From positions 39,900-103,899 of the forward strand of contig NZ_KE557320.1 of the NCBI RefSeq assembly GCF_000442315.1: DNA of 64,000 nucleotides, in the 5' to 3' direction. The DNA is from Rubellimicrobium thermophilum DSM 16684 (lineage in GTDB: Bacteria; Pseudomonadota; Alphaproteobacteria; Rhodobacterales; Rhodobacteraceae). The translations under genes and the position numbers were made by a program. This document shows, one piece after another, positions 279 to 12,804 of the stretch. Each line of letters starts with the position of its first letter. Position 1 is the stretch's first letter. The notes under the pieces are model-generated. The model did not search any database, had not been told where the DNA came from, and saw only the letters and a program-made list of their open reading frames with translations.

Positions 279-1241
279 TCAGGCACCATAAAGCGCGGCC
301 ATCACAATCCGCGTGGCGGCGGCGGCATCCTGGCGGGCCTGCGCCTCGGCCAGCGCGGGATCAGCGGCCAGAATGCGCGCAATGGCACGCAGGCGGTCGG
401 TCGCGGCGATGTTGGCCCGCGCCTCGCCCACGGGGTCGGTGCCGCCATGGTCGGGGAAGGTGTCGAAATAGATCACCCCGTCATAGCCCGCCCGGTCGAG
501 CGCGACGAAGAGTTCGACCGTCTGCACCGGATGGACCGAACCCGCGATCAGCCCGTCGTCGCGCTTGCCGTAGCCGTCGTTCAGATGCACGCCGAGGATG
601 CGGCTTTTTCGCGCGGCCAGCATCGCGGCGCGCGCCGGCATCTCGCCGGCAAAGAGCATGTGGCAGAAATCGAGCGTGACCCCGGTGTTGGGCCGCCCGA
701 CCTCGGCTAGGGCCAGAAGGGTCGTCGCCATGTCGGGCATCACCACATGGGCGCGGGGTTCGTTCGGCTTGTATTCGATGGCGATGTCGATGGACGGGTT
801 ATGATCGGCGATCTCGGCGATGGCGGCGATGCTGTCGTCCCACATCCGCTCGTAATCGGCCTGGAAGGAATAGTCGAACCCGTCCTGCCCGAGCCAGAGC
901 GTCATCAGCCGCCCGCCCATGTCGGCCAGCGCATCGAGGCCGCGCTTCGTCAGGTCGATCGCGGCGCGACGGGTGGCGGGATCGGGGTGGGAGAAGGCCC
1001 CGAGCCGGAAGCCCGGATCGGTGTAGTAGCGCATGGCAAGCCCGTTCAGCGCCATGCCGTGATCGGTCAGGATCCGGGTCAGTTCGGCCGGGGGGTGATG
1101 CTCGAAATGGTCGGGAAAGTTCAGGTCGGCGGCATCGAGGCCCCCCACCTGCGCGGCGGCCGCGATCATCTCGGCCACCGTGTCGCCCTTGCGTCCGAAG
1201 GCGTTCAGCCGGGTGGCATAGCGGGGTCTGTTCGGGATCAT
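279..1241 (-). CDS. Sugar phosphate isomerase/epimerase, TIM-barrel (AP endonuclease 2 family)
   Basis: A 320-residue protein of the xylose-isomerase-like TIM-barrel family, which isomerises or epimerises sugars or sugar phosphates in the cytoplasm with a divalent metal. Likely metal ligands are Glu156 (in IEYKPNEPR), Asp191 (in LDFCH), His219 (in GVHLND) and an acidic residue near 257 (YFDTF; Asp where many relatives have Glu). The ATG at 1241 is chosen because the preceding 27 possible codons look non-coding. It is divergent from the ribokinase-family gene and belongs by position to the sugar island. The exact substrate cannot be read from the sequence. Relatives include L-rhamnose isomerase-like and tagatose-3-epimerase-like enzymes. 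Confidence 0.8.
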   Translation of the reverse strand: MIPNRPRYATRLNAFGRKGDTVAEMIAAAAQVGGLDAADLNFPDHFEHHPPAELTRILTDHGMALNGLAMRYYTDPGFRLGAFSHPDPATRRAAIDLTKRGLDALADMGGRLMTLWLGQDGFDYSFQADYERMWDDSIAAIAEIADHNPSIDIAIEYKPNEPRAHVVMPDMATTLLALAEVGRPNTGVTLDFCHMLFAGEMPARAAMLAARKSRILGVHLNDGYGKRDDGLIAGSVHPVQTVELFVALDRAGYDGVIYFDTFPDHGGTDPVGEARANIAATDRLRAIARILAADPALAEAQARQDAAAATRIVMAALYGA

Positions 1242-1460
1242 GGTGGCGTGATCAGTCCGGGCTGGTTGTGTCCCAATGGGGCAGGGGGGTCGGTATCGGG
1301 CAAGGATGCGGCTGCAAGGCACCCCTGCCGCCCCGGGCAGCGGGCCCCGGTCTGGTCACAGGCGCTGACAGCGGCCGCGATGTTAGATGGCGTGAGGGGG
1401 CTGTCAATCAGCCCCGTCCTCCGATCCGGAGAGCAGGAGGCGGAGCGCAGCAGGCAACAG

Positions 1461-1488
1461 TTGCACCGGGCCGCGCGGGCCGTAACCT
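1461..1488 (+). promoter_or_regulatory. Candidate promoter for the ribokinase-family gene
   Basis: TTGCAC (1461-1466), a 16-bp spacer and TAACCT (1483-1488). This predicts a transcript start near 1495, just upstream of the AGGGAG ribosome binding site at 1501-1506. Confidence 0.35.
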
Positions 1489-1515
1489 GTCGGCAGAGCG
1501 AGGGAGATCCAGCCC

Positions 1516-2385
1516 GTGACCATGCCCACCGTCCTTGTCGTCGGCAGCCTGCACCATGACATCATGGTCGAGGCCGACCACCTGCCCCGCCGCGACGAGA
1601 CGGCGGTCGGGCGGCGCTGGTATCCCAAGTTCGGCGGCAAGGGCGGCAATCAGGCGGTGGCGGTGGCCCGCGCCGGCGCCCCCTGCCGGATGTTCGGCGC
1701 GGTGGGCGATGACGGCTTCGGCGCCTTCCTGCGGCAGGGGTTGCGGGCGGGCGGGGTGGAGGACCGTTTCGTGCAGACCCTGCCCGGCGTGGGGTCGGGG
1801 ATGAGCGTGGCGATCCTCGACGCGCGGGGCGACTATGCCGCGACCATCGTCTCGGGCGCGAACCTCAAGGCCGATCCGGCGGCGCTGGCCGCGCCCGATC
1901 TATGGCGGGATGTGGGCCTGCTGATCCTGCAGAACGAGGTTTCCGAGGCGCTGAACCTGGCGGCGGCGCGCGAGGCGCGGGCGCGGGGTGTGCGCTGCCT
2001 GCTGAACGCCGCCCCGGCGCGGGAACTGCCGGCGGACCTGGCGGGGCTGGTCGATCTTCTGGTCGTTAACGCGGTCGAGGCCGAGATGATGGGCGCGGGT
2101 GCCGTCCGGTCGCTGGAAGAGGCGCGCGCCGCGGCTGAAAGTCTGGCGCGGCGGTTTCCGGCAGCGATCGTCACCGCGGGCAGTCTGGGGTTGGCGGCGG
2201 CAGAGGGGGAGACGGGGTTTGCGCTGCCGGCCGAGAAGGTGCGGGCGGTGTCCAGCCACGGGGCGGGCGACACCTTCATCGGCACGCTGGCCGCGGGGCT
2301 CGTGCGCGGGCTGGACCTGCGCGCGGCGGCGGGCGCAGCCTCGCTGGCCGCCGCGCGGCATGTCGGCGGGCAGGCGCCGGGCTGA
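1516..2385 (+). CDS. PfkB/ribokinase-family carbohydrate kinase
   Basis: A 289-residue cytoplasmic kinase that would phosphorylate a sugar or nucleoside with ATP. The N-terminal substrate signature GGKGGNQA is at residues 40-47. The C-terminal anion-hole/catalytic signature GAGDTF carries the catalytic base Asp252. Length is normal for ribokinase. A GTG start at 1516 is preferred over ATG 1522 because AGGGAG lies 9 bases upstream of the GTG. It is divergent from the TIM-barrel isomerase and convergent with the HAD gene. Its place in the island suggests it phosphorylates the imported sugar or an intermediate. The substrate is unknown. Confidence 0.85.
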   Translation: MTMPTVLVVGSLHHDIMVEADHLPRRDETAVGRRWYPKFGGKGGNQAVAVARAGAPCRMFGAVGDDGFGAFLRQGLRAGGVEDRFVQTLPGVGSGMSVAILDARGDYAATIVSGANLKADPAALAAPDLWRDVGLLILQNEVSEALNLAAAREARARGVRCLLNAAPARELPADLAGLVDLLVVNAVEAEMMGAGAVRSLEEARAAAESLARRFPAAIVTAGSLGLAAAEGETGFALPAEKVRAVSSHGAGDTFIGTLAAGLVRGLDLRAAAGAASLAAARHVGGQAPG

Positions 2386-2394
2386 GCGGGGGGC

Positions 2395-3330
2395 TCAGGG
2401 GCTTGGCACGATGAAATCCGGCACGATGCCGGAAGCGGCGATGAAGGGCGCGGTGGCGCGACCGGCAAAGAGGCCGTGATCGGTGACCAGCACGCTGCGG
2501 CAACCCGCCGCTGCGCCACCCAGCACATCGGTGTGCAGCGTATCGCCCACCATGGCCAGGCGGTCGGGTGCCAGGCCGGTGCGGGCGATGCCTTCGGCGA
2601 AGGCCTCGGGGAAGGGTTTGCCGAACCAGTGCACCTCGAGCCCCGGCAGGGCATCCAGAAGGTCATGGCCGAAGAGCCCCGGCTCCAGCGTGAGACCGCC
2701 TTCGCGCGGGGCGACGAGGTCGGGATTGGCGATGACAAGGGGGCGCGGGCGACGGTCGAGCGCCAAGGCCAGGCGGCGTTGCAGCGCAGGCGACCAGCGT
2801 GCGGTGGACAGGAACAGGATCGCATCGGCCCGGTCGAAGGCGGCGGGGTCGGCCAGCGCATCGACAAGGTGCGCAGGGATATCGGCGAAGGTGTCGCCCG
2901 CCGCCGCGATCGCGGCCCAGGTGGCGCCGGGGGCGATTGCCTCAAGCCGCGCCACGGCGACATCGCGCGAGGCCACGACCTCATCGGCGGTGAAGTCGAA
3001 GCCCAGGCGGTGATACTTGGCCAGAAGCTGATCGCGCGTGTAGCTGGCAGCATTGGTCAGCACCGCCAGCCTTTTCCCGCGCCGGCGAAGGCTCGCCATG
3101 CGCGCCACCGCGCCGGGGATCGCGGTTTCGCCCACGTTGAGGACGCCGAAGGCATCGAGGAGGAAGCCGTCCACCTGATCCGCCACCTCGTCCAGCGAGG
3201 ACAGGTGCAGCGACTGCGCCGGATAACGGGCGACGGGCAGGCGGGGGCGGATCGCCTCATACCGCGCGAAGGCAGAGGGCGCGTCGGAGAGCATGTCCCC
3301 CGGCCCGGCGTCGAGGGAGACGTCAGACAC
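2395..3330 (-). CDS. Class IIA HAD-superfamily hydrolase (TIGR01459/NagD-like)
   Basis: A 311-residue phosphatase-type HAD protein. Motif I is DAFGVL with nucleophile Asp59; the usual second Asp is Phe61, as in several NagD-like groups. Motif II is TNAA, motif III the Lys in GKPFPE, and motif IV GDTLHTD. It is the last gene of a five-gene minus-strand operon and overlaps the SDR start by 8 bases. In Bacillus subtilis a NagD-like phosphatase (AraL) is encoded next to a G1P dehydrogenase (AraM) in the arabinose operon. The same pairing here suggests, but does not prove, a sugar-phosphate phosphatase role. Confidence 0.85.
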   Translation of the reverse strand: MSDVSLDAGPGDMLSDAPSAFARYEAIRPRLPVARYPAQSLHLSSLDEVADQVDGFLLDAFGVLNVGETAIPGAVARMASLRRRGKRLAVLTNAASYTRDQLLAKYHRLGFDFTADEVVASRDVAVARLEAIAPGATWAAIAAAGDTFADIPAHLVDALADPAAFDRADAILFLSTARWSPALQRRLALALDRRPRPLVIANPDLVAPREGGLTLEPGLFGHDLLDALPGLEVHWFGKPFPEAFAEGIARTGLAPDRLAMVGDTLHTDVLGGAAAGCRSVLVTDHGLFAGRATAPFIAASGIVPDFIVPSP

Positions 3331-4090
3331 TGGTGAACCCGCCTTCCACCATCAGAAGCGCGCCGTTGACCATGCTTGAGGCGTCCGAGGCGAGGTAAAG
3401 GGCCGCGTCGGCGACCTCCACCGGCTCGGCAAAGCGCCTTGCCGGGGTGGCGTTGCGGAAGGGGTCGCCCTTTTCCGGCTTGCCCCAGACCTGTCGGCCC
3501 ATGGGCGTCATCACCACGGTCGGGCAGATCGCGTTGACCTGCACGTTGAACCGCGCCCATTCGGCGCAAAGCGACTTCGTGAGCGCGTTCAGCCCGCCTT
3601 TGGAGGCGGCATAGGCCGCATGGTCATCCAGCGCGATCACCCCGGTCTGGGAAGAGATGTTGATGACCTTTCCCCACCTCTGCGCGATCATCGCCGGCGC
3701 CAGCGTCCGGGCCGTCAGGAAGGGGGCGCGCAGGTTGACGGCCATCATCCGGTCCCAGGCCTCGGTCGTGAAATCCACCGCCGGGGCGACATGGGCGATC
3801 CCGGCGGAGTTCACCAGGATGTCGATGGTGCCCCATTCGGCCAGCGCGCGTTCGCAGGCTTCGACGGGTTCGGTCGGGCTTTCCATCTCGGCCGTCAGGG
3901 TCAGGCAGCGCCGGCCATGGGCGCGGACGGCCTCGGCCGTGGCGGCGAGGTCGGCCGCATCGCGGCCCAGCGCCACGATGTCGGCGCCGGCCTCGGCAAA
4001 GACGCGGGCGATCTCGGCCCCGATTCCCTTGGAGGCCCCGGTGATCAGCGCCTTGCGCCCCGTCAGCGAAAAGCGGTCCTGCCAGGACAT
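3323..4090 (-). CDS. SDR-family NAD(P)-dependent dehydrogenase
   Basis: A 255-residue classical short-chain dehydrogenase. The nucleotide-binding glycine motif is TGASKGIG near residue 18, followed by NSAG and the catalytic Ser (NISSQTG) and YAASK motifs. The C-terminal LMVEGGF is typical of gluconate-5-dehydrogenase/polyol dehydrogenase relatives. It sits between the SIS gene (3 bases upstream) and the HAD gene (8-base overlap), so it is co-transcribed with them. A polyol or keto-sugar oxidoreductase fits the context. The substrate is not determined. Confidence 0.85.
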   Translation of the reverse strand: MSWQDRFSLTGRKALITGASKGIGAEIARVFAEAGADIVALGRDAADLAATAEAVRAHGRRCLTLTAEMESPTEPVEACERALAEWGTIDILVNSAGIAHVAPAVDFTTEAWDRMMAVNLRAPFLTARTLAPAMIAQRWGKVINISSQTGVIALDDHAAYAASKGGLNALTKSLCAEWARFNVQVNAICPTVVMTPMGRQVWGKPEKGDPFRNATPARRFAEPVEVADAALYLASDASSMVNGALLMVEGGFTSV

Positions 4091-4093
4091 CGG

Positions 4094-4654
4094 TCACTCC
4101 AGATTGGTATGACGCGCGCGCATCGCCTCGGGCGTGACGCCGAGATGGTCGCGGAGGGAAAGGATCAGCAGCTCGAAGGCCAGATACTGCGCGCCCTCGA
4201 ACAGCGAGCCCATCGGCAGGACGGAAGTCGCCGCCGCACCCTGATCGTTCGCCATGGTCTGCGCCGGGATCAGGAATACCCGGTCGGCGGCACGGGGGGC
4301 CGGGCCCTGAGGCTGGGCGGTGACGCAGGCCACCCGCGCGCCCGCCTTGCGGGCGACGCCGATCAGCCCCTCGACGGTGGAAAAGCCACCCGGCCCCGCG
4401 CTGACCACCAATAGGTCGCCGGGGCCGACCGGCGGACAGGACATGTCGCCCACCACATGCGCATCGAGCCCCATGTGATAAAGGCGCATGGCAAGCGCCC
4501 GCATCATCAGCCCCTCGCGCCCCACCCCGTAGCAGACGATGCGGCGGGCCTGGGCCAGTTCCTCCACCATCCCCTGCAACGCGGCGGGGTCGATTGCGGC
4601 CACGGCATCGCGGATTTCCCCGGCAGCGCGGGCGGCAAGGTCGGAAAGCGTCAT
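4094..4654 (-). CDS. SIS-domain sugar isomerase (6-phospho-3-hexuloisomerase-like)
   Basis: A 186-residue single SIS-domain protein. The phosphosugar-binding loop appears as CYGVGREG near residue 40, and VVSAGPGG follows at the second strand. Length and form match the 6-phospho-3-hexuloisomerase group, which converts a 3-hexulose 6-phosphate to fructose 6-phosphate. The ATG overlaps the stop of the upstream dehydrogenase (ATGA), indicating translational coupling. No partner 3-hexulose-6-phosphate synthase is present, so another 3-ketose phosphate may be the substrate. Confidence 0.75.
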
Positions 4655-5991
4655 GTGCCCACCTTCGATTGCAGGGTCTGCGGCAGGGCCGCCAGGGCAG
4701 CGTGATCCAGAAGCCCGACCTCGTCCAGCAGGTCGAGCACGGTATAGCGGCTGCGCAGGAAGCGGGCCTTCAGGATCGTGCGGTGCAGATAGGCCGGATC
4801 GACGCCGATGTCCGCCGCCTCGACCGGGGCGCCGGCGCGGGCGAGATGATTGGCCATGCGCTCCGCGGGCCAGAGCCGGGCGCGCAGCCGGGCCGACAGG
4901 TCGGGCCAGATGTCGCGCAAGCGGGTCAGGCGGGCCTGCAACGCGGCCCCCTCGACATGCTTGGCGCGGGTCTCCTCGATGGCGCGTTCGGCGATCTCCC
5001 CGGGGCCGAAGCGGGCGCGAATCTCGGCCTCCTTCGCGGCAAGGGTCGGGGCTTCGGCCGCCCGGCGGGCGGGGTCGAGCGCGGTGAGGTCGCGCGCGAG
5101 AAGCCAGTCGAACATCCGCAAGGCCGCCATGGCGCCGACCGCGACGCAGGCGCCATGGCTGACCCGCTCGCCGTTGTGGTGCAGGTCGTCCATCTCCCAT
5201 AGATGGGCGATCTGGTGGTCGGCCCCGGAGGCGGGGCGCGAGGAGCGGTGCGCCTCCATCGCCAGACCGACCAGCGTCAGGCCGAGGAACAGGGCCCTCC
5301 ACCGCCGCGCGGTCGCCGGCGGCGATCCGGTCGGGCTGCGACAGCCAGCCTTCGAGGCCGCCCTGCACCATGGGCCAGGCGACATCGTCGATGGGTTCGA
5401 TCCCCAGCGCATCGGCAATGATCCAGTCGCCCCCCGCCGGAACCTTGCCCGCGAGGTCGCCATAGCCCCAGCCCGTCATCTCGGGCGGGGCGGCGGCGAT
5501 CACGTCGAGGTCGGCGAGCAAGACCTTCGCCGGGCGGCAGGGGATGGTCTTCTTGAACCCCTTCTCCGACAAGGGCGCGCCGGCCGAGGTATAGCCGTCC
5601 ATGCTGGCCGCCGTGGCCACGCACATATAGGGGATGCCGGCGGTGAAGGCCGCATGCTTCACCACATCGTTCATCACGCCCGAGCCGACGGCAACGGGCG
5701 TCTCGCCAGGACGCAGCACGGCGCGGAGCGAATCGGCCAAGTCCACCGTGGGCTTGGGGCGCGGGATGGCCGGAATGACATGGCGGCGCGTCGGGATGCC
5801 GGCTGCCGCGAAGGCCGCCTCTACCGCCTCCCCCGCCGCGCCCCAGCCGCGGTCGTCGGCCATCAGGACCACGGGGCCCGAGAAATGCCGGGCGTAGAGG
5901 CTGCCCGCCTCGGCCAGCACCCCGCGTCCGATCAGCACTTCGGCCACATGGGCCGAACGCGCCACGGCCTCGCGGATCGGGTCCGGCCCGC

Positions 5992-5995
<4 letters not shown>
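4651..5995 (-). CDS. Glycerol-1-phosphate dehydrogenase-like enzyme (AraM/EgsA family), frame interrupted
   Basis: An iron-containing-alcohol-dehydrogenase-fold protein of about 447 residues after repair. It has the [10 protein letters not shown] dinucleotide motif, [10 protein letters not shown], and metal ligands in GDLAGK (Asp), GADHQIAH (His) and NGERVSHG (His). These are the hallmarks of AraM-type NAD(P) sn-glycerol-1-phosphate dehydrogenase, which interconverts G1P and dihydroxyacetone phosphate. The frame breaks at 5292-5297 (gggccc), where removing one base restores it. The start overlaps the ABC ATPase stop (ATGA) and the stop overlaps the SIS start. In a sugar-import operon a catabolic role on a polyol phosphate is more likely than archaeal-type lipid synthesis. 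Confidence 0.8.
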
Positions 5996-7053
<1,058 letters not shown>

Positions 7054-7101
7054 GCGCCCCCCATGTCTGCGCCGCCCGGGCGGCGCCTTGCGATTTTCCG
7101 G

Positions 7102-7149
7102 TTGACTCGCTCCGGTTTCGATACATTTATATGCGTAGCGTTACAAATG
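7102..7149. promoter_or_regulatory. Divergent operon control region with a 26-bp operator palindrome
   Basis: The palindrome CATTTATA-N10-TACAAATG spans 7124-7149; its 8-bp arms match at all but one position. A TTGACT box lies at 7102-7107, so the palindrome covers the likely -10/start region of the plus-strand operon. It sits midway between the ABC ATPase and binding-protein start codons. The SorC-family regulator encoded three genes downstream is the obvious candidate ligand-responsive binder; this is inference. Confidence 0.55.
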
Positions 7150-7189
7150 AAAGTCAACTCTGGAACGCTGAGCCCAAGGGGAGGAAAGC

Positions 7190-8530
7190 ATGACGTTCAA
7201 GTCGCATATCAGCGCAGTGGCGCTGGCTGCGGCCTCGCTGGCCGGGCTGGCCGGCGCGGCACAGGCCTGGTCGCTGGAAGAGGCCGCCAAGCCCTATGCG
7301 GGCACGGTCGTTGACGTGGTGTTCCTGGATCGCCCCGGCTACAACGCCATCAGGGAGATGCTGCCCGAGTTCGAAGCGGCCACAGGCATCACGATCAACA
7401 TCACCACGATGCCTTACGAGAATGCGCTGGGCGAACAGGTGCGCGATTTCGTGGCCGGCGGCGATCTCGATCTCGCACTGATCGATCTCGTCTGGATCGG
7501 CAACTTTGCCGAGAACGGCTGGATCGTGCCGATCGAGGAGTTCACGTCCAACCCCGATCTGGTCGATCCCGAGCTCGATCTCGAGGATTTCTTCCCGCTG
7601 GTTCTCAATGCCTTCGGCGCCTGGAACGGGGTCGTCTACGGCCTGCCCATCGACAACTATTCGGGGCTGCTGTTCTACAACCGCTGCATGCTGGAGGAGG
7701 CCGGTTTCGACCGCCCGCCCGAGACCTGGGAGGAACTGAAGGACGTCTACGGTCCGGCGCTGACCGGGGATGGCAGATATGCCTTTGCGCTCCAGTCCAA
7801 GCGCAACGAGACGCAGTCGGCCGACAGCTTCGCTCGGATGCTCTGGCCGTTCGGCGGCAGCTTCCTGAACGCAGAGTTCCGCTCCAACCTCAACTCGCCC
7901 GAAAGCCAGGCGGGGCTCCAGTTCCGGCAGGAGCTGATGGCCTACATGCCGCCGGGTATCGTCGCCTACGACCATGCCGAGACGGTGAATGCGCTCGCCC
8001 AGGGTGATGTGGCGATGATCACCGAATGGTCGGCCTTCTACACCACCCTCGTCAGTCCGGAGACATCGAAGGTGGCCGATTGCATCGAGGTGGCCCCCGA
8101 GCCGATGGGCCCGGCGGGCCGCAAGCCCGCACTTGGTGGCTTCTCGCTGGCTGTGGCCACGCAGGCGGACGAGGCCGAGAGGGCGGCTGGCTGGCTTTTC
8201 ATCCAGTGGGCGACATCGAAGGCCAATGCCGAGACCTATCTGCGCAAGGGCGGGGTGCCGGCGCGGCAGTCGGTCTATCAGATCCCCGGCATTGCCGAGG
8301 AATTCAAGTTCGTGCCCGCCCTGGTCGAGAGCTGGCAGGAAGGCGTGCCCGAGTTCCGTCCGCGCTTTGCCGAATGGCCGACGATCAGCGAGATCGTGCA
8401 GGAATGGGGCACGAAGATGATGCTGGGCGAGGTCAGCATCGAGGATGGTGCCCGCGAGATCGGGACCCGCATGGAGGCGGTGCTCGAGGATGCCGGCTAT
8501 TACAGTGGCGAGAAGCCGCTGGTTCAATAG
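7190..8530 (+). CDS. ABC transporter extracellular solute-binding protein, CUT1 (family 1)
   Basis: A 446-residue periplasmic binding protein. A signal peptide of about 26 residues ends in AGAAQA. The mature protein has the family-1 fold ([34 protein letters not shown]). A strong ribosome binding site (GGGGAGG) lies upstream of ATG 7190. It is followed by a hairpin and two CUT1 permease genes, and the ATPase is divergent. It should deliver a mono-, oligosaccharide or polyol. The ligand cannot be named from sequence. Confidence 0.93.
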
Positions 8531-8552
8531 CGGGACATGTGACGGAAGGTTC

Positions 8553-8579
8553 CGGGCGCCGGCCTGCGGTCGGCGCCCG
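8553..8579 (+). terminator. Intra-operon stem-loop after the binding-protein gene
   Basis: Perfect 9-bp arms cgggcgccg / cggcgcccg surround a 9-base loop, with no T-tract. This position is typical for a partial terminator or 3' stabiliser that lets binding protein exceed permease expression. Confidence 0.6.
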
Positions 8580-8671
8580 ACATCTGTGGCGCCGGTGCCC
8601 CCGATAGGCGGAGCGCGGACGGCGCCCTGGCAAGACCGGTTTCCTGAGACGGATCCGGGGGAGGGAGAACG

Positions 8672-9550
8672 ATGACAGCCCGAGTCCGGCGCAGGACGAT
8701 CCTGGCGTTCCTTGGCCCTGCCGTTACAGCCCTGGCGGCTGTCGGCATCCTGCCGCTCGGCTACGCCGTGTGGAAGAGTCTGCACGACTTCAACCTGACA
8801 CGCATCGCAAGGCAGAAATTCGTGGGGCTCGACAATTATGTCGCCGTGCTGGGCGACCCGGTGTTCTGGGCCGCGGTGGGCCGCACGGCGATGCTGTTCG
8901 TCATCGCGGTCCCGATCCAGATCGCCCTCGGCCTGATGATCGCGCTGGTCCTGCACCGGCCGGGCCTCGGCTTCTGGAAGACGCTGACGCGGCTTTCGCT
9001 CGTGCTGCCGATGGCTACGACCTATGCCGTGGTGGGGCTGCTGGCGCAGGTGATGCTGAATCAGAAATACGGCGTCGTGAACCAGATGCTGGGCTGGATC
9101 GGGATAGATCCAATCAATTTTATCGGTGATCCTACAAATGCATTCATCGCCGTCGTCCTGTGGGACATCTGGCAATGGACGCCCTTTGTCGCGCTGGTCC
9201 TGCTGGCAGGCCTGTCCACCGTTCCGCCCGAGATCGAGGAAGCCGCCCGGCTGGAGACGAAATCCGGCTGGACCATCCTGCGCCATGTGCAGTTGCCCTT
9301 CCTGGTGCCGAGCCTCGTTGCGGTGCTGATCCTGCGCACCGCCGACACGCTGAAGCTGTTCGACATGCCCTTCACCATGACGCGCGGCGGTCCGGGATCC
9401 GCGACCGAGTTCATCGCCGTGCTGATCGAGCGTGTAGGCAACCGCCAGTTCGACATCGGCATGGCCGCGGCACAGTCGATCATCATGCTGGCGATCACCA
9501 TCGTGCTGGCCCGGCTTTACATCCGCCTCTTCTATCGCGAGGTCCGCTGA
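8672..9550 (+). CDS. ABC sugar transporter permease (MalF-like)
   Basis: A 292-residue inner-membrane protein with about six transmembrane helices. The EAA loop that contacts the ATPase reads EEAARLETKSGW near residue 192. It is one of two permeases of the CUT1 importer and is separated from the next permease gene by one base. GGGGGAGGG upstream of ATG 8672 serves as ribosome binding site. Confidence 0.93.
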   Translation: MTARVRRRTILAFLGPAVTALAAVGILPLGYAVWKSLHDFNLTRIARQKFVGLDNYVAVLGDPVFWAAVGRTAMLFVIAVPIQIALGLMIALVLHRPGLGFWKTLTRLSLVLPMATTYAVVGLLAQVMLNQKYGVVNQMLGWIGIDPINFIGDPTNAFIAVVLWDIWQWTPFVALVLLAGLSTVPPEIEEAARLETKSGWTILRHVQLPFLVPSLVAVLILRTADTLKLFDMPFTMTRGGPGSATEFIAVLIERVGNRQFDIGMAAAQSIIMLAITIVLARLYIRLFYREVR

Positions 9551-9551
9551 C

Positions 9552-10379
9552 ATGGCCGCCCCTGTGCGCCGCCCCCATCTCTGGGCCGAAGGCCTGCTTC
9601 TCCTCCTCATCGGTCTCTTCTGCGTCTTCCCCTTCTACTGGATGGTCACCACCAGCCTGAAGACGCAGGTGGTCGCGCTGGAATCCCCTCCGGTCTGGTG
9701 GTTCACACCGACGCTGGCGAATTACTGGGAAGTCCTGTTCGTGGACAGGGTCGGCCCGGCCCTCATCAATTCCATCATCGTTGCGGTCTGCACCACGGCA
9801 CTGGCCGTGGGCCTGGGGACGCCCGCAGCCTATGCGCTGGCGCGGTTCGAGTTCCGCGGCAAGCGCGACCTGTGGTTCTGGTTCATCACCAACCGTTTCG
9901 TCAGCCCCGTGGTGCTGGCCTTTCCTGTCTTCCTAATCGCCCGCGAGGTGGGGCTGCGCGACACCCACCTGGCCCTGATCCTGATGTATCTGACCTTCAC
10001 CCTGCCGATCGTGATCTGGATCTGCACCGACCAGTTCCGCTCGATCCCCTACGAGCTGGATGAGGCGGCCATGCTCGAGGGCGCCTCGCAGTGGCGCATC
10101 TTCCGTTCGATCTGCCTGCCGTTGGCCATGCCGGGCGTCGCGGTGAGCAGCATCCTGTCCTTCATCTTTTCGTGGAACGAGCTTCTCTTTGCCTACATCC
10201 TCGCGCCCAAGGCCGCGAAGACCGCCCCCGCCATGGCTGTGACCTTCATGGAAGGCTATGATGTTCCTTACGGAAAGATCATGGCGACGGCGACGCTGAT
10301 CGTTGTCCCTGTCTTGATCTTCGCGCTGCTGGCGTCGAAACACCTGGTTCGGGGCCTGACGATGGGGGCCGTGAAGTAG
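9552..10379 (+). CDS. ABC sugar transporter permease (MalG-like)
   Basis: A 275-residue permease with about six membrane helices and an EAA loop, DEAAMLEGASQW, near residue 172. The N-terminal helix starts immediately (LLLLLIGLFCVFPFYW), as in MalG-type partners. It pairs with the preceding permease and is followed after 8 bases by the SorC regulator gene in the same transcript. Confidence 0.93.
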   Translation: MAAPVRRPHLWAEGLLLLLIGLFCVFPFYWMVTTSLKTQVVALESPPVWWFTPTLANYWEVLFVDRVGPALINSIIVAVCTTALAVGLGTPAAYALARFEFRGKRDLWFWFITNRFVSPVVLAFPVFLIAREVGLRDTHLALILMYLTFTLPIVIWICTDQFRSIPYELDEAAMLEGASQWRIFRSICLPLAMPGVAVSSILSFIFSWNELLFAYILAPKAAKTAPAMAVTFMEGYDVPYGKIMATATLIVVPVLIFALLASKHLVRGLTMGAVK

Positions 10380-10387
10380 GGGGTGTC

Positions 10388-11356
10388 ATGGCCCGCGCGC
10401 CGAAGCTTCCGCAGATCGACACCGAGGAGCGTTTCCTGGCCCAGGTCGCCTGGGCCTATCATGTCGAAGGGCTGACGCAGGAGAAGGTGGCCGAAAAGCT
10501 GGGCGCGACGCGGCTGCGCGTCAACAAGGCCCTGGCCGAGGCGCGGGCCCGGGGCCTGGTCCGCATCACCTTCAATACCGCCTTCGCCGCCTGTGCCGAA
10601 CTTGAGGCGGCGCTGCGCGCGCGCTGGGGGCTGAAGCAGGCCTATGTCGCCCCCGCGCCGATGGATCCGCGCGATGTGCAGATGATCACGGGCGCGGCAC
10701 TGGGCAACCTTCTGTCCGAAGTGCTGGCCGACCCGAAGGTGCGTCTGTTCGGCATGTCCTGGGGCGGGACGCTGAACATCGCCACCCGCTTCGTCGCGGC
10801 GATGAACCGGCCGGATCTCGAGGTGATCTCGGTCATGGGGGGGCTTACCCGCGGATCGGATCTGAACAGTTTCGAGATCACCACGCGCCTGGCCGACCTG
10901 CTGGGCGCCCAGCACAGTTATTTCACCGCGCCGCTCTACGCCGGCAGCCGGGAAAGCCGCGACACGATCATGCAGCTCGACGTGTTCCGCGAGGTGCTGG
11001 AAAAGCTGCGGAGCGTCGATGCGCTGGCCATGGCGGCGGGCGACATCTCGAAGGCTTCGCTTCTGATGCGCGACGGGTTGCCCGGCGACGTGACGATGGA
11101 GGAGCTGCGCGCCCTGGGTGCGGTGGGCGACGTGCTGGGCGTGGTGATCGACGCCGAGGGACAGCCGATCCCGCATCCGATCAACGAGCGGGTCATCGGT
11201 ATCGGGCTCGAAGATCTCGGGCCGATCCCGAATGTCATCCTGGCCGCCGGGGGGCCTCACAAGGTGCCGGTGGTGCGCGCCATCCTGAAGCGGGGCGTCG
11301 TGAATACCCTCGTGACCGACGAGGCAACCGCCCGTACACTTCTGGAGCGCGGCTGA
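10388..11356 (+). CDS. SorC/DeoR-type sugar-responsive transcriptional regulator
   Basis: A 322-residue regulator. The N-terminal helix-turn-helix (about 24-60; GLTQEKVAEKLGATRLRV) is followed by a SorC sugar-binding domain (about 70-320). That domain carries GMSWGGT and VMGGLTRG, typical of the phosphosugar-binding fold. These proteins usually sense a phosphorylated intermediate of the pathway they control. The stop codon overlaps the start of the FGGY kinase (TGATG), so regulator and kinase are translated together. Probable target is the palindrome at 7124-7149. Confidence 0.9.
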   Translation: MARAPKLPQIDTEERFLAQVAWAYHVEGLTQEKVAEKLGATRLRVNKALAEARARGLVRITFNTAFAACAELEAALRARWGLKQAYVAPAPMDPRDVQMITGAALGNLLSEVLADPKVRLFGMSWGGTLNIATRFVAAMNRPDLEVISVMGGLTRGSDLNSFEITTRLADLLGAQHSYFTAPLYAGSRESRDTIMQLDVFREVLEKLRSVDALAMAAGDISKASLLMRDGLPGDVTMEELRALGAVGDVLGVVIDAEGQPIPHPINERVIGIGLEDLGPIPNVILAAGGPHKVPVVRAILKRGVVNTLVTDEATARTLLERG

Positions 11357-12804
11357 TGGCGCTCCATGTCGGCATCGACCTCGGAACCTCGGGCATCAAG
11401 GCGGTGCTGATCGAGGATCTCTCCCGCGTCGTCGCCGTGGCGGCAGAGCCCGTGGCGGTCAGCCGCCCGCAGCTAGGCTGGTCCGAACAGGACGCCGACC
11501 TCTGGGTCTCCACGGTGTTTTCCTGTCTCGACCGGCTGGCGGCCGTGGCCCCGCGCGAAATGGCGGCAGTCGAGGGGATCGGGCTGTCGGGCCAGATGCT
11601 GGCGGCGCTGATCCTGGATGACGCCTTGCGCCCGTTGCGCCCGGCGATGCTGTGGAACGACCAGCGCGCGATCGCGGAATGTGCCGAGCTGCTGGCGGCG
11701 GTGCCCGACATCGGCCGGCGCACCAATGGCACGCCCGACCCCGGCATCACCGCGCCGAAGCTGATGTGGCTGCGCAAGCACGAGCCACAGCTGATGGACC
11801 GCGCGCGGATGCTCTTGCTGACCAAGGATTACGTCCGCCTCGCCCTGACCGGGGAGGTCGCGACGGAGCCTTCGGATGCGGGCGGGACGCAGCTTCTGGA
11901 CGTTGTCTCGGGGAGCTGGGACCCTGCGCTCTGCGCAGCCGCAGGCTGGGATCCGGCGCATCTGCCCCCGGTGCTGGACAGCTGGGCCGAGGCCGGGCGG
12001 CTAAGGCCCGAGCTGTGCGCCCGCTGGGGCATGACGGGGCCGGTCGCGGTGGCGGCGGGCGCGGGGGACAACATGGGCTCCACGCTCGGCGCGGGCGGGG
12101 TGCGGCCGGGGGATGCGGTGCTGACCGTCGGCACCTCGGGCGTGGCCTGCGTGGTGGATGCGGCCTTCCACCCCGGACCGGAGCGCGCGATCCTGACCTC
12201 GGCCCATGTCGTACCGGGGGTCTTCCTGTCCATGGGTGTAGTGATGTCGGCAACGGCGAGCCTCGACTGGCTGGGCCAGATCACCGGGCGCGCCGTGCCC
12301 GATCTGGACGCCGAGGCCACGGCCTTCGCCGCCCGTGGCATCGAGGCCGCGCCGCTGTTCCTCCCCTGCCTGACCGGCATCCGCACGCCGCTGAACCGCC
12401 CGGACCTGACGGGGCGCATGGCGGGGCTGCATCCGGGCGTCACGCCGGCGATGCTGGCCTATGCGACGATGGAGGGCGTCGCCTTCCAGTTCGCCGACTG
12501 CATCGCCGCGCAGGAGGAGGTGGGGGTGCGGCCCGAGCGGTTCACCGTGGTCGGCGGCGGCACGCGCAGCGCGCTGTGGCTGCGGCTGATGGCCAGCGTG
12601 CTGGGCCGTCCGCTGGCCCTGATCGAGGGCGCCGACATGGCCGGCCCACGCGGGGCGGCGCGGCTGGCCGCCGTCGCGGCCGGGGCGCCGGTCGGGATCC
12701 TGTCGGAGCCCGTCCCCGCCCGCCGCGAGGTCGCGCCCGATCCTGCCCTGGCCGAGGGACTGGCCTTGCGGCGCATGGGCATGGCCGCGCTGACAGGCTT
12801 CTGA
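11356..12804 (+). CDS. FGGY-family carbohydrate kinase (xylulokinase-like)
   Basis: A 482-residue kinase. The N-terminal phosphate-binding loop GIDLGTSGIK is at residues 6-15, with LWNDQR and the catalytic-loop aspartate region AGAGDNMG near 235. The C-terminal ATP domain contains VGGGTRSALW. Overall form is closest to xylulokinase. It ends the plus-strand transporter operon. Together with the PfkB kinase it gives the island two sugar kinases, so the pathway may have two phosphorylation branches or act on two substrates. Confidence 0.85.
   Translation: MALHVGIDLGTSGIKAVLIEDLSRVVAVAAEPVAVSRPQLGWSEQDADLWVSTVFSCLDRLAAVAPREMAAVEGIGLSGQMLAALILDDALRPLRPAMLWNDQRAIAECAELLAAVPDIGRRTNGTPDPGITAPKLMWLRKHEPQLMDRARMLLLTKDYVRLALTGEVATEPSDAGGTQLLDVVSGSWDPALCAAAGWDPAHLPPVLDSWAEAGRLRPELCARWGMTGPVAVAAGAGDNMGSTLGAGGVRPGDAVLTVGTSGVACVVDAAFHPGPERAILTSAHVVPGVFLSMGVVMSATASLDWLGQITGRAVPDLDAEATAFAARGIEAAPLFLPCLTGIRTPLNRPDLTGRMAGLHPGVTPAMLAYATMEGVAFQFADCIAAQEEVGVRPERFTVVGGGTRSALWLRLMASVLGRPLALIEGADMAGPRGAARLAAVAAGAPVGILSEPVPARREVAPDPALAEGLALRRMGMAALTGF

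What the first reader, a model, noticed from the sequence alone, without database searches (positions are those of the whole stretch)
279..12804. AraL/AraM-like gene pair inside an alphaproteobacterial sugar-import island
A G1P-dehydrogenase-family enzyme and a NagD-type HAD phosphatase share one tightly overlapped operon with an SDR, a SIS isomerase and a CUT1 ATPase, and face a binding protein, permeases, SorC regulator and FGGY kinase. Bacillus subtilis has the same odd pairing (AraL, AraM) in its arabinose operon, where the purpose is unclear. Archaeal-type lipid synthesis is not expected here. The set could define an undescribed catabolic route to DHAP or fructose 6-phosphate from a polyol or 3-ketose.
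Basis: partly seen in the sequence, partly recalled or inferred. Interest (0 to 1): 0.6.

Follow-up and report, generated by a model that had tools for sequence, protein, structure and literature searches.

The report
Conserved pentitol-type uptake island with AraM
This is a real, conserved bacterial gene set for importing and probably breaking down a small sugar alcohol, in which an enzyme family best known for making archaeal-type lipid building blocks seems to stand in for an ordinary sugar-alcohol dehydrogenase; the copy in this genome carries a one-base break.

Summary
The gene set is real: HAD-SDR-SIS-AraM-ATPase diverges from SBP-permease-permease-SorC-FGGY, and 33 of 46 AraM loci with ample flanks hold every function. 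Corrections: the window's AraM gene is split by one extra base near 5292, an error or very recent, since both halves look selected; the HAD has DAF instead of DxD, so it is no plain AraL; the SIS is HxlB-like but lacks the SxSxxT phosphate loop; no HxlA or PcrB was found in the 89%-complete genome; the TIM barrel and PfkB kinase at 279-2385 are not part of the conserved set. Main new result: loci with the same binding protein carry either AraM (70 loci, none with the zinc MDR dehydrogenase) or an MDR dehydrogenase (11 of 11 loci without AraM). So AraM most likely does a polyol dehydrogenase's job in uptake and oxidation of a pentitol-like polyol, feeding pentulose phosphates through FGGY kinases. 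The DHAP, F6P and lipid readings lack support. Substrate and phosphorylation state are untested.

The parts
2395..3330 (-). HAD-IIA-like protein (nearest TIGR01459 and PDB 2hx1), motif I D59-A-F61; HADs of subclass IIB or IA occur in this role in some relatives
   Evidence: other subclasses
3323..4090 (-). SDR dehydrogenase, nearest NCBIfam GolD/DthD (262.4 bits, cut-off 286)
4094..4654 (-). SIS-domain protein of an HxlB-like clade with GREG and SAGPGxF in place of GRSG and SGSGET
4651..5995 (-). AraM / G1P-dehydrogenase-family dehydrogenase, split by one extra base near 5292-5294 (N half 5280-5995, C half 4651-5313)
5992..7053 (-). CUT1 ABC transporter ATPase (UgpC model, 485.6 bits, cut-off 432)
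7190..8530 (+). solute-binding protein, best PDB relative by sequence and fold 5iai
8672..9550 (+). CUT1 permease 1
9552..10379 (+). CUT1 permease 2
   Evidence: ortholog hits (no profile scan made of this one)
10388..11356 (+). SorC-family sugar-binding regulator (nearest NCBIfam LsrR, 145 bits, cut-off 486)
11356..12804 (+). FGGY kinase, passes the xylulokinase cut-off (TIGR01312, 389.6 bits, cut-off 380.25)

Best explanation
A SorC-regulated uptake and catabolic island for a small sugar alcohol, most likely a pentitol. The CUT1 ABC system imports the polyol; NAD(P)-dependent dehydrogenases (the SDR plus the AraM-family enzyme) oxidise it to a 2-ketopentose; the FGGY kinase phosphorylates the pentulose into the pentose phosphate pathway. 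The AraM-family enzyme does here the job that a zinc-dependent medium-chain (MDR) dehydrogenase does in sister islands with the same binding protein, so it is a catabolic polyol dehydrogenase, not a lipid enzyme. Whether it acts on the free polyol (my first choice, about 0.4) or on its phosphate (about 0.3) is open. The SIS protein probably shifts the carbonyl of the sugar before phosphorylation, and the HAD protein probably removes mis-phosphorylated polyols. Shown: gene content, conservation, replacement pattern, family and motif assignments. Inferred: substrate class, reaction order, direction, and the SIS and HAD roles. The copy in this assembly is frame-broken.
For: Conserved layout. AraM/MDR swap: SBP with at least 75% identity in 11 of 292 order genomes; 6 of these carry AraM and no MDR hit in the stretch held, 5 carry the MDR and have no AraM at E<=1e-15; by my arithmetic a perfect split by chance is 1 in 462. 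Over all loci held, 0 of 70 SBP+AraM loci (67 distinct SBP DNAs; 51 of the 70 with 6 kb or more on both sides of the SBP) have the MDR, and 11 of 11 SBP loci without AraM have one, 0.1-5.6 kb from the SBP. Kinase families: TIGR01312 over cut-off in the window, TIGR01315 pentulose kinase 651.4 against 408.7 in L140. SBP best match 5iai by sequence and fold (Z 39.9, rmsd 3.2, 388 aligned). No PcrB and no HxlA match in the genome. Precedent that a protein annotated as G1P dehydrogenase can act on a free substrate: VNG_6270G of Halobacterium is a glycolaldehyde reductase without notable G1P/DHAP activity (PMC9700705, passages).
Against: No ligand or activity was measured. That 5iai binds ribitol is my recall; titles are cut off, 24-26% identity does not fix a ligand, and the next-best fold match is a maltose-binding protein (6dtq, Z 38.9). 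The cassette AraM keeps the SRPASG motif of PDB G1PDH chains, and divergent AraM lineages recur beside FGGY and HAD genes, both of which favour a phosphorylated substrate. AraM-MDR exclusivity may partly reflect sampling: most AraM loci were collected by AraM, the MDR query came from one of the MDR loci, 19 of the 70 AraM loci have short flanks, and two of the 11 MDRs are only 31% alike. MDR and AraM variants also differ in kinase and HAD, so the swap is not of one gene alone. Five to six of the 46 well-flanked AraM loci lack FGGY, SIS or SDR each (37, 40, 39 of 46 have them). The SIS and HAD roles are guesses.
Confidence: 0.55

Rival explanations
1. Kinase-first route: the FGGY kinase phosphorylates the polyol and the AraM-family enzyme oxidises the polyol phosphate next to the phosphate, as G1P dehydrogenase does on G1P; SIS then moves the carbonyl and HAD releases phosphate.
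For: Family precedent and the SRPASG motif shared with PDB G1PDH chains; within 5 kb of AraM, FGGY in 15 and HAD in 13 of 37 loci from order/class/phylum searches, 0 of 40 control windows for either; reduced loci L043 (which also has a PfkB kinase) and L045 keep FGGY, AraM, SIS, HAD without this ABC system or SDR; Rhizobium-type plasmid clusters add GlpD and an aldolase/SDR fusion.
Against: The FGGY here scores as a xylulokinase; AraM is swapped for an MDR dehydrogenase; SIS lacks the canonical phosphate loop; none of the ten cassette genes is an aldolase for a ketose 1-phosphate.
Confidence: 0.3
2. Metabolite repair: promiscuous kinases make dead-end polyol phosphates; HAD (and perhaps AraM) clears them, as was suggested for AraL.
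For: HADs of three subclasses (IIA, IIB, IA) occur in this role; the IA type is nearest to 6-phosphogluconate phosphatase, with hexitol phosphatase among its matches, all under cut-off; AraL has low specificity, its deletion did not affect arabinose use, and its authors suggest disposal of accumulated phosphates (PMC3207120, passages).
Against: The window-type HAD lacks the second Asp in 52 of 52 rows outside the four Rubrobacter-type loci (3 of the rows are duplicates); repair does not explain the AraM-MDR swap.
Confidence: 0.15
3. True G1P synthesis for archaeal-type lipids.
For: AraM-family profile match.
Against: No PcrB match in the genome, although the same search rings in B. subtilis and the archaeal controls (genome 88.9% complete); catabolic context.
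Confidence: 0.03
4. A decaying locus: the frameshift marks a pseudogene in this strain.
For: One uncompensated indel in AraM.
Against: Both halves show dN/dS 0.09-0.24 against two relatives and hold no stops; every other cassette gene is open; another gene of this assembly (TIGR01459 match at C3:453.8-454.5 kb) is matched in two frames, which hints at assembly indels.
Confidence: 0.2

Closest known systems
Bacillus subtilis araABDLMNPQ-abfA operon (AraL, AraM)
   Same: AraM-family dehydrogenase and HAD-IIA protein in one sugar operon with transport genes (operon as given in PMC3207120 passages)
   Different: None of the ten cassette genes is an araA, araD or arabinosidase; the HAD has DAF instead of DxD; SIS, SDR, SorC and a XylB-type kinase are added; AraL was reported not to be involved in arabinose use
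Sister islands with Zn-MDR dehydrogenase (e.g. Ruegeria sp. THAF33 plasmid pTHAF33_b, L152)
   Same: Same SBP (77% identical), permeases, SorC, SIS, SDR and ATPase
   Different: MDR instead of AraM, HAD-IA instead of HAD-IIA, a second SDR and a second FGGY kinase (96% identical to the TIGR01315-type one of L140) besides xylB
Rhizobial polyol loci (smoEFGK; eryABCD/mptABCDE/rbtABC)
   Same: ABC import and catabolic genes for polyols (PMC3599248 passages; PMC10433430 start of abstract in the listing)
   Different: None of the passages seen mentions an AraM relative
6-phospho-3-hexuloisomerase HxlB (YckF, 1m3s)
   Same: Fold (Z 25.2, rmsd 2.7, 181 aligned); PMGSLFE and HxNLE kept
   Different: GREG and SAGPGxF replace GRSG and SGSGET; no HxlA match in the genome
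Halophilic archaeal glycolaldehyde reductase VNG_6270G
   Same: G1PDH-annotated protein that works in carbon catabolism and not on G1P (PMC9700705 passages)
   Different: Other substrate, pathway and gene context

Membership tests
AraM/EgsA bacterial G1P dehydrogenase | Fe-ADH_2 / G1PDH profile | tested here: met
   PF13685 94.3 bits over cut-off 28; A2 profile best PDB chain 9h4x 202.7 bits against 76-84 for 5fb3, 4rgq, 4rfl and 90 for 3ce9. But the NF002022 equivalog scores 71.4 (window N half) and 132.4 (intact ortholog L015), far under its cut-off 413
AraM/EgsA bacterial G1P dehydrogenase | metal-ligand Asp and two His (GxGD, DHxxxH, HG; positions by recall) | tested here: met
   [16 protein letters not shown] in the window frames; D181, H261, H281 invariant in the 5 rows of A2
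AraM/EgsA bacterial G1P dehydrogenase | oxidises G1P / reduces DHAP | not testable with these tools
   -
AraM/EgsA bacterial G1P dehydrogenase | one intact reading frame | tested here: not met
   split in the window; intact in L015 (446 aa)
AraL / NagD-type HAD-IIA sugar phosphatase | HAD-IIA profile | tested here: inconclusive
   PF13344 66.6 over 27; TIGR01460 89.9 under 100.15, TIGR01459 92.2 under 103.75
AraL / NagD-type HAD-IIA sugar phosphatase | motif I DxD (nucleophile plus acid/base) | tested here: not met
   D59-A-F61; F in 51, Y in 1, D in 4 of 56 rows, 53 distinct; motifs II-IV kept
HxlB 6-phospho-3-hexuloisomerase | TIGR03127 over its cut-off | tested here: not met
   150.7 against 160
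HxlB 6-phospho-3-hexuloisomerase | phosphate loop SxSxxT (role by recall) | tested here: not met
   A86-G-P88-G-x-F91 invariant in 33 rows against SGSGET in 1m3s; [ST][AC]GPG in 83 of 86 SIS rows, 83 distinct proteins
HxlB 6-phospho-3-hexuloisomerase | partner HxlA in the genome | tested here: not met
   TIGR03128: no match in own genome (genome 88.9% complete)
Xylulokinase XylB (FGGY) | TIGR01312 over its cut-off | tested here: met
   389.6 against 380.25
GolD/DthD polyol dehydrogenase (SDR) | NF005309 over its cut-off | tested here: not met
   262.4 against 286
CUT1 polyol ABC transporter | SBP binds a pentitol/hexitol | not testable with these tools
   fold nearest to 5iai (Z 39.9), 6dtq (38.9, maltose), 4rya (37.5); ligands of 5iai and 4rya recalled, titles cut

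The most novel reading that the evidence does not exclude
AraM-family 'G1P dehydrogenases' of bacteria outside the lipid-making lineages are in the main catabolic polyol (or polyol-phosphate) dehydrogenases, interchangeable with Zn-MDR polyol dehydrogenases, and the SIS partner is a new HxlB-derived ketose isomerase that has given up the phosphate loop and works on an unphosphorylated sugar.
Probability: 0.3. Interest if true: 0.65.

Novelty: new variant of a known kind. Interest (0 to 1): 0.48.

Why it matters
What araM and araL do in sugar operons is still unclear. A cassette found in many genomes, whose importer is tied either to AraM or to a zinc MDR dehydrogenase, turns that into a direct test: one binding assay and one enzyme assay on orthologs would tell what these AraM relatives do outside lipid synthesis, and would warn against annotating them as lipid enzymes.

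Tried and rejected
Route through 3-hexulose 6-phosphate to F6P: rejected for lack of an HxlA match and loss of the SIS phosphate loop. Route to DHAP: none of the ten cassette genes is an aldolase; aldolases appear in other AraM modules (FBA in L020, L021 and L023; aldolase/SDR fusion in L106 and L107) and an FBA hit of 35% lies 4 kb from AraM in L062. Erythritol-type C4 route (FGGY, dehydrogenase, isomerase, RpiB): considered because RpiB sits beside AraM in Rubrobacter-type loci; within 7 kb RpiB is near 6 of 111 AraM rows and near none of the 61 rows with SIS, so not favoured. Archaeal-type lipid: no PcrB match. TIM barrel and PfkB kinase as cassette members: TIM in 1 and PfkB in 2 of 80 loci; both recur with a BtpA-M42-FGGY-SIS cluster. 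My early reading of the GGDW Asp of AraM as the metal ligand was dropped for the GxGD Asp, by recall of GldA. PAG[GA]DW as a mark of the cassette AraM: 68 of 111 rows, but by the lists L100 and L101 have it too, so not used as evidence; a looser regex for metal ligands missed 18 of 111 rows and was not used. Ten paper searches listed no paper that I could recognise as describing this cassette; listings were capped, some were mostly unrelated, and the library is open-licence only. A search for Dshi locus tags (recalled xylitol genes of Dinoroseobacter shibae) found nothing. PMC9007349 has no mention of these terms beyond one of Dinoroseobacter.

Limits of the counts: 80 of 325 relatives were kept; plasmid neighbourhoods were opened for 5 of 23 AraM records (H1, H2, H3, H5, H21), 6 of 14 SBP records (H24, H25, H26, H28, H31, H37; H26 is unannotated) and 1 of 159 SIS records (H46). 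In one search three pairs of loci are the same DNA (67 distinct of 70); the same three pairs are in the HAD (53 distinct of 56) and SIS (83 distinct of 86) counts. In one search three duplicate loci were left out and rows with internal stops or under 330 aa were dropped (111 kept); it is a FastTree tree with long-branch warnings. In one search the models were trained on loci outside the 37 tested (apart from duplicates of L015, L017 and L019), and the 40 control windows come from 20 stretches that I picked away from AraM in 16 of the genomes.
Full report
What is there. The ORF list and profile scans confirm a divergent gene set: on the minus strand HAD, SDR, SIS, AraM-family dehydrogenase and a UgpC-type ATPase with overlapping or nearly touching ends; on the plus strand a solute-binding protein, two permeases, a SorC-type regulator and an FGGY kinase. 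The AraM frame is not whole: residues up to about codon 235 are read in one frame and the rest in another. Against Tabrizicola flagellatus (L036, 93.6% identical over this gene) and two other relatives, the window has one extra base near 5292-5294; against L036 the other indels inside cassette genes come in compensating sets. Both halves are free of stops and show dN/dS of 0.09-0.24 against L036 and L034, so the break is recent or an error; a TIGR01459 match elsewhere in the assembly is spread over two frames as well.

Conservation. A pattern-based scan of 84,980 species genomes gave 325 relatives of the AraM alignment, of which the best 80 were kept. Of 46 of these with at least 8 kb upstream and 5 kb downstream, 41 hold the whole ABC system and SorC, 37 FGGY, 40 SIS, 39 SDR, 39 a HAD of class IIA or IIB; 33 hold everything. 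An epimerase-like gene is an occasional addition (11 of the 46). Hosts are mainly Rhodobacteraceae, with Hyphomicrobiales and Kiloniellaceae, and MAGs called Desulfosarcina (L084) and Opitutae (L095) hold parts of it. The binding protein is well kept (73-95% identity to the window over 31 rows), while AraM rows are about 50% identical to L015 across genera. The set is patchy: AraM with over 50% identity in 6 of 292 order genomes (10 of 292 at E<=1e-15 with distant ones).

The swap. The same binding protein (75% identity or more) occurs in 11 of 292 order genomes. Six carry AraM, and no MDR hit in the stretches held. The other five, one of them in the window's own genus, have no AraM at E<=1e-15 and carry in the same island a zinc-dependent MDR dehydrogenase. 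Four of those five also have a HAD-IA protein next to the ATPase and a further FGGY kinase; the one tested (L140) passes TIGR01315 (651.4 bits against 408.7) and the others are 62-71% identical to it. The fifth, L137, shows neither kinase nor HAD in the 20 kb held. Plasmids show the same layout, e.g. Ruegeria sp. THAF33: xylB, HAD-IA, UgpC // SBP, permeases, regulator, alcohol dehydrogenase, SIS, SDR, SDR, FGGY; Caballeronia Lep1P3 shows only ABC genes, regulator, SDR and MDR in the 19 kb read. Over all loci held, none of 70 SBP+AraM loci (51 with 6 kb or more on both sides of the SBP) has the MDR, and all 11 SBP loci without AraM have one, 0.1-5.6 kb from the SBP, two of them only 31% alike. 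I read this as AraM taking the place of a polyol dehydrogenase. That the MDR is of the sorbitol/xylitol type rests on a recalled motif; its NCBIfam matches are all far below cut-off (best L-idonate 5-dehydrogenase).

The other enzymes. The SIS protein has the HxlB fold (AlphaFold pLDDT 94.1; Z 25.2, rmsd 2.7 over 181 residues to YckF) and keeps PMGSLFE and HTNLE, but scores under the HxlB cut-off and has GREG for GRSG and SAGPGxF for the SGSGET loop; 83 of 86 SIS rows carry GREG and 83 of 86 [ST][AC]GPG (three rows are duplicates). It also occurs next to another FGGY kinase in a second kind of cluster with BtpA- and M42-family genes. The HAD has an intact nucleophile, Thr/Ser, Lys and GDxxxxD/E, but Phe where the second Asp of motif I stands: F in 51, Y in 1 and D in 4 of 56 rows, the four being Rubrobacter-type loci. 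The HAD-IIB and HAD-IA representatives printed there have DxD. So 'phosphatase' is likely for the role but not secure for this protein.

AraM beyond this cassette. In 37 loci from order, class and phylum searches, FGGY lies within 5 kb in 15 and a HAD in 13 (either in 21 by my count of the list, neither in 16), against 0 of 40 control windows for both; in L015-L019, which are of the window type, FGGY lies beyond 5 kb. The tree puts these in several divergent lineages: a type with GlpD, FBA and mostly CUT2 genes (L020, L021, L023), a Rhizobium type with FGGY, CUT1 genes and an SDR, with GlpD and an aldolase/SDR fusion in L106 and L107, and a Rubrobacter type with RpiB (L101, L103-L105). In Propionibacterium freudenreichii an araB-araM-araL island apart from the araABD locus has been noted (PMC4437456, passages), which fits.

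Mechanism. Most likely the ABC system imports a pentitol; the SDR and the AraM-family enzyme oxidise it; FGGY kinases send the pentulose into the pentose phosphate pathway. For AraM I lean to the free polyol because an MDR takes its place, the kinase scores as xylulokinase, and a G1PDH-annotated archaeal protein is known to act on a free substrate (PMC9700705, passages). The case for a phosphorylated substrate is nearly as good: SRPASG is shared with PDB G1PDH chains, and kinase and HAD partners recur. Lipid synthesis is unlikely without PcrB. DHAP or F6P as end products have no support in the cassette.

Limits. I saw no ligand, activity or expression data for these proteins. The 5iai ligand (ribitol), the identity of 9h4x as B. 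subtilis AraM, the role of the SIS loop in phosphate binding and the Dinoroseobacter xylitol genes are recalled. The genome is 88.9% complete, so absences are not final.

Noticed in passing
window 279-1241 (-) and 1516-2385 (+): Xylose-isomerase-like TIM barrel and PfkB kinase, related to a pair (63-73% and 45-50% identical) that in other Rhodobacterales sits with BtpA-, M42-, FGGY- and SIS-family genes; here no hit to those queries lies in the 18 kb upstream.
   Followed up: partly
L142-L147, L150: A second conserved cluster: M42-like protein, FGGY kinase and the same SIS clade, in most with a BtpA/SgcQ-family gene and CUT1 genes; resembles E. coli sgc genes by recall. Substrate unknown.
   Followed up: partly
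L068, L074, L075 versus L071, L077: Related loci of which three lack both FGGY and SIS hits while keeping ABC, AraM, SDR and HAD-IIB, and two have both.
   Followed up: no
L094: AraM relative beside a 43%-identical HAD, CUT1 genes and what reads by eye like a GH51 arabinofuranosidase in Tropicimonas, reminiscent of the Bacillus ara operon.
   Followed up: no
G000:C3:453788-454523 (L181, L182): A TIGR01459-family match near a ribF-like frame (by eye) is spread over two frames, hinting at indel errors in this assembly.
   Followed up: partly
L063: Cassette-clade AraM among genes that by eye look like a polyol PTS, a Zn dehydrogenase, RpiB and a class II aldolase.
   Followed up: no
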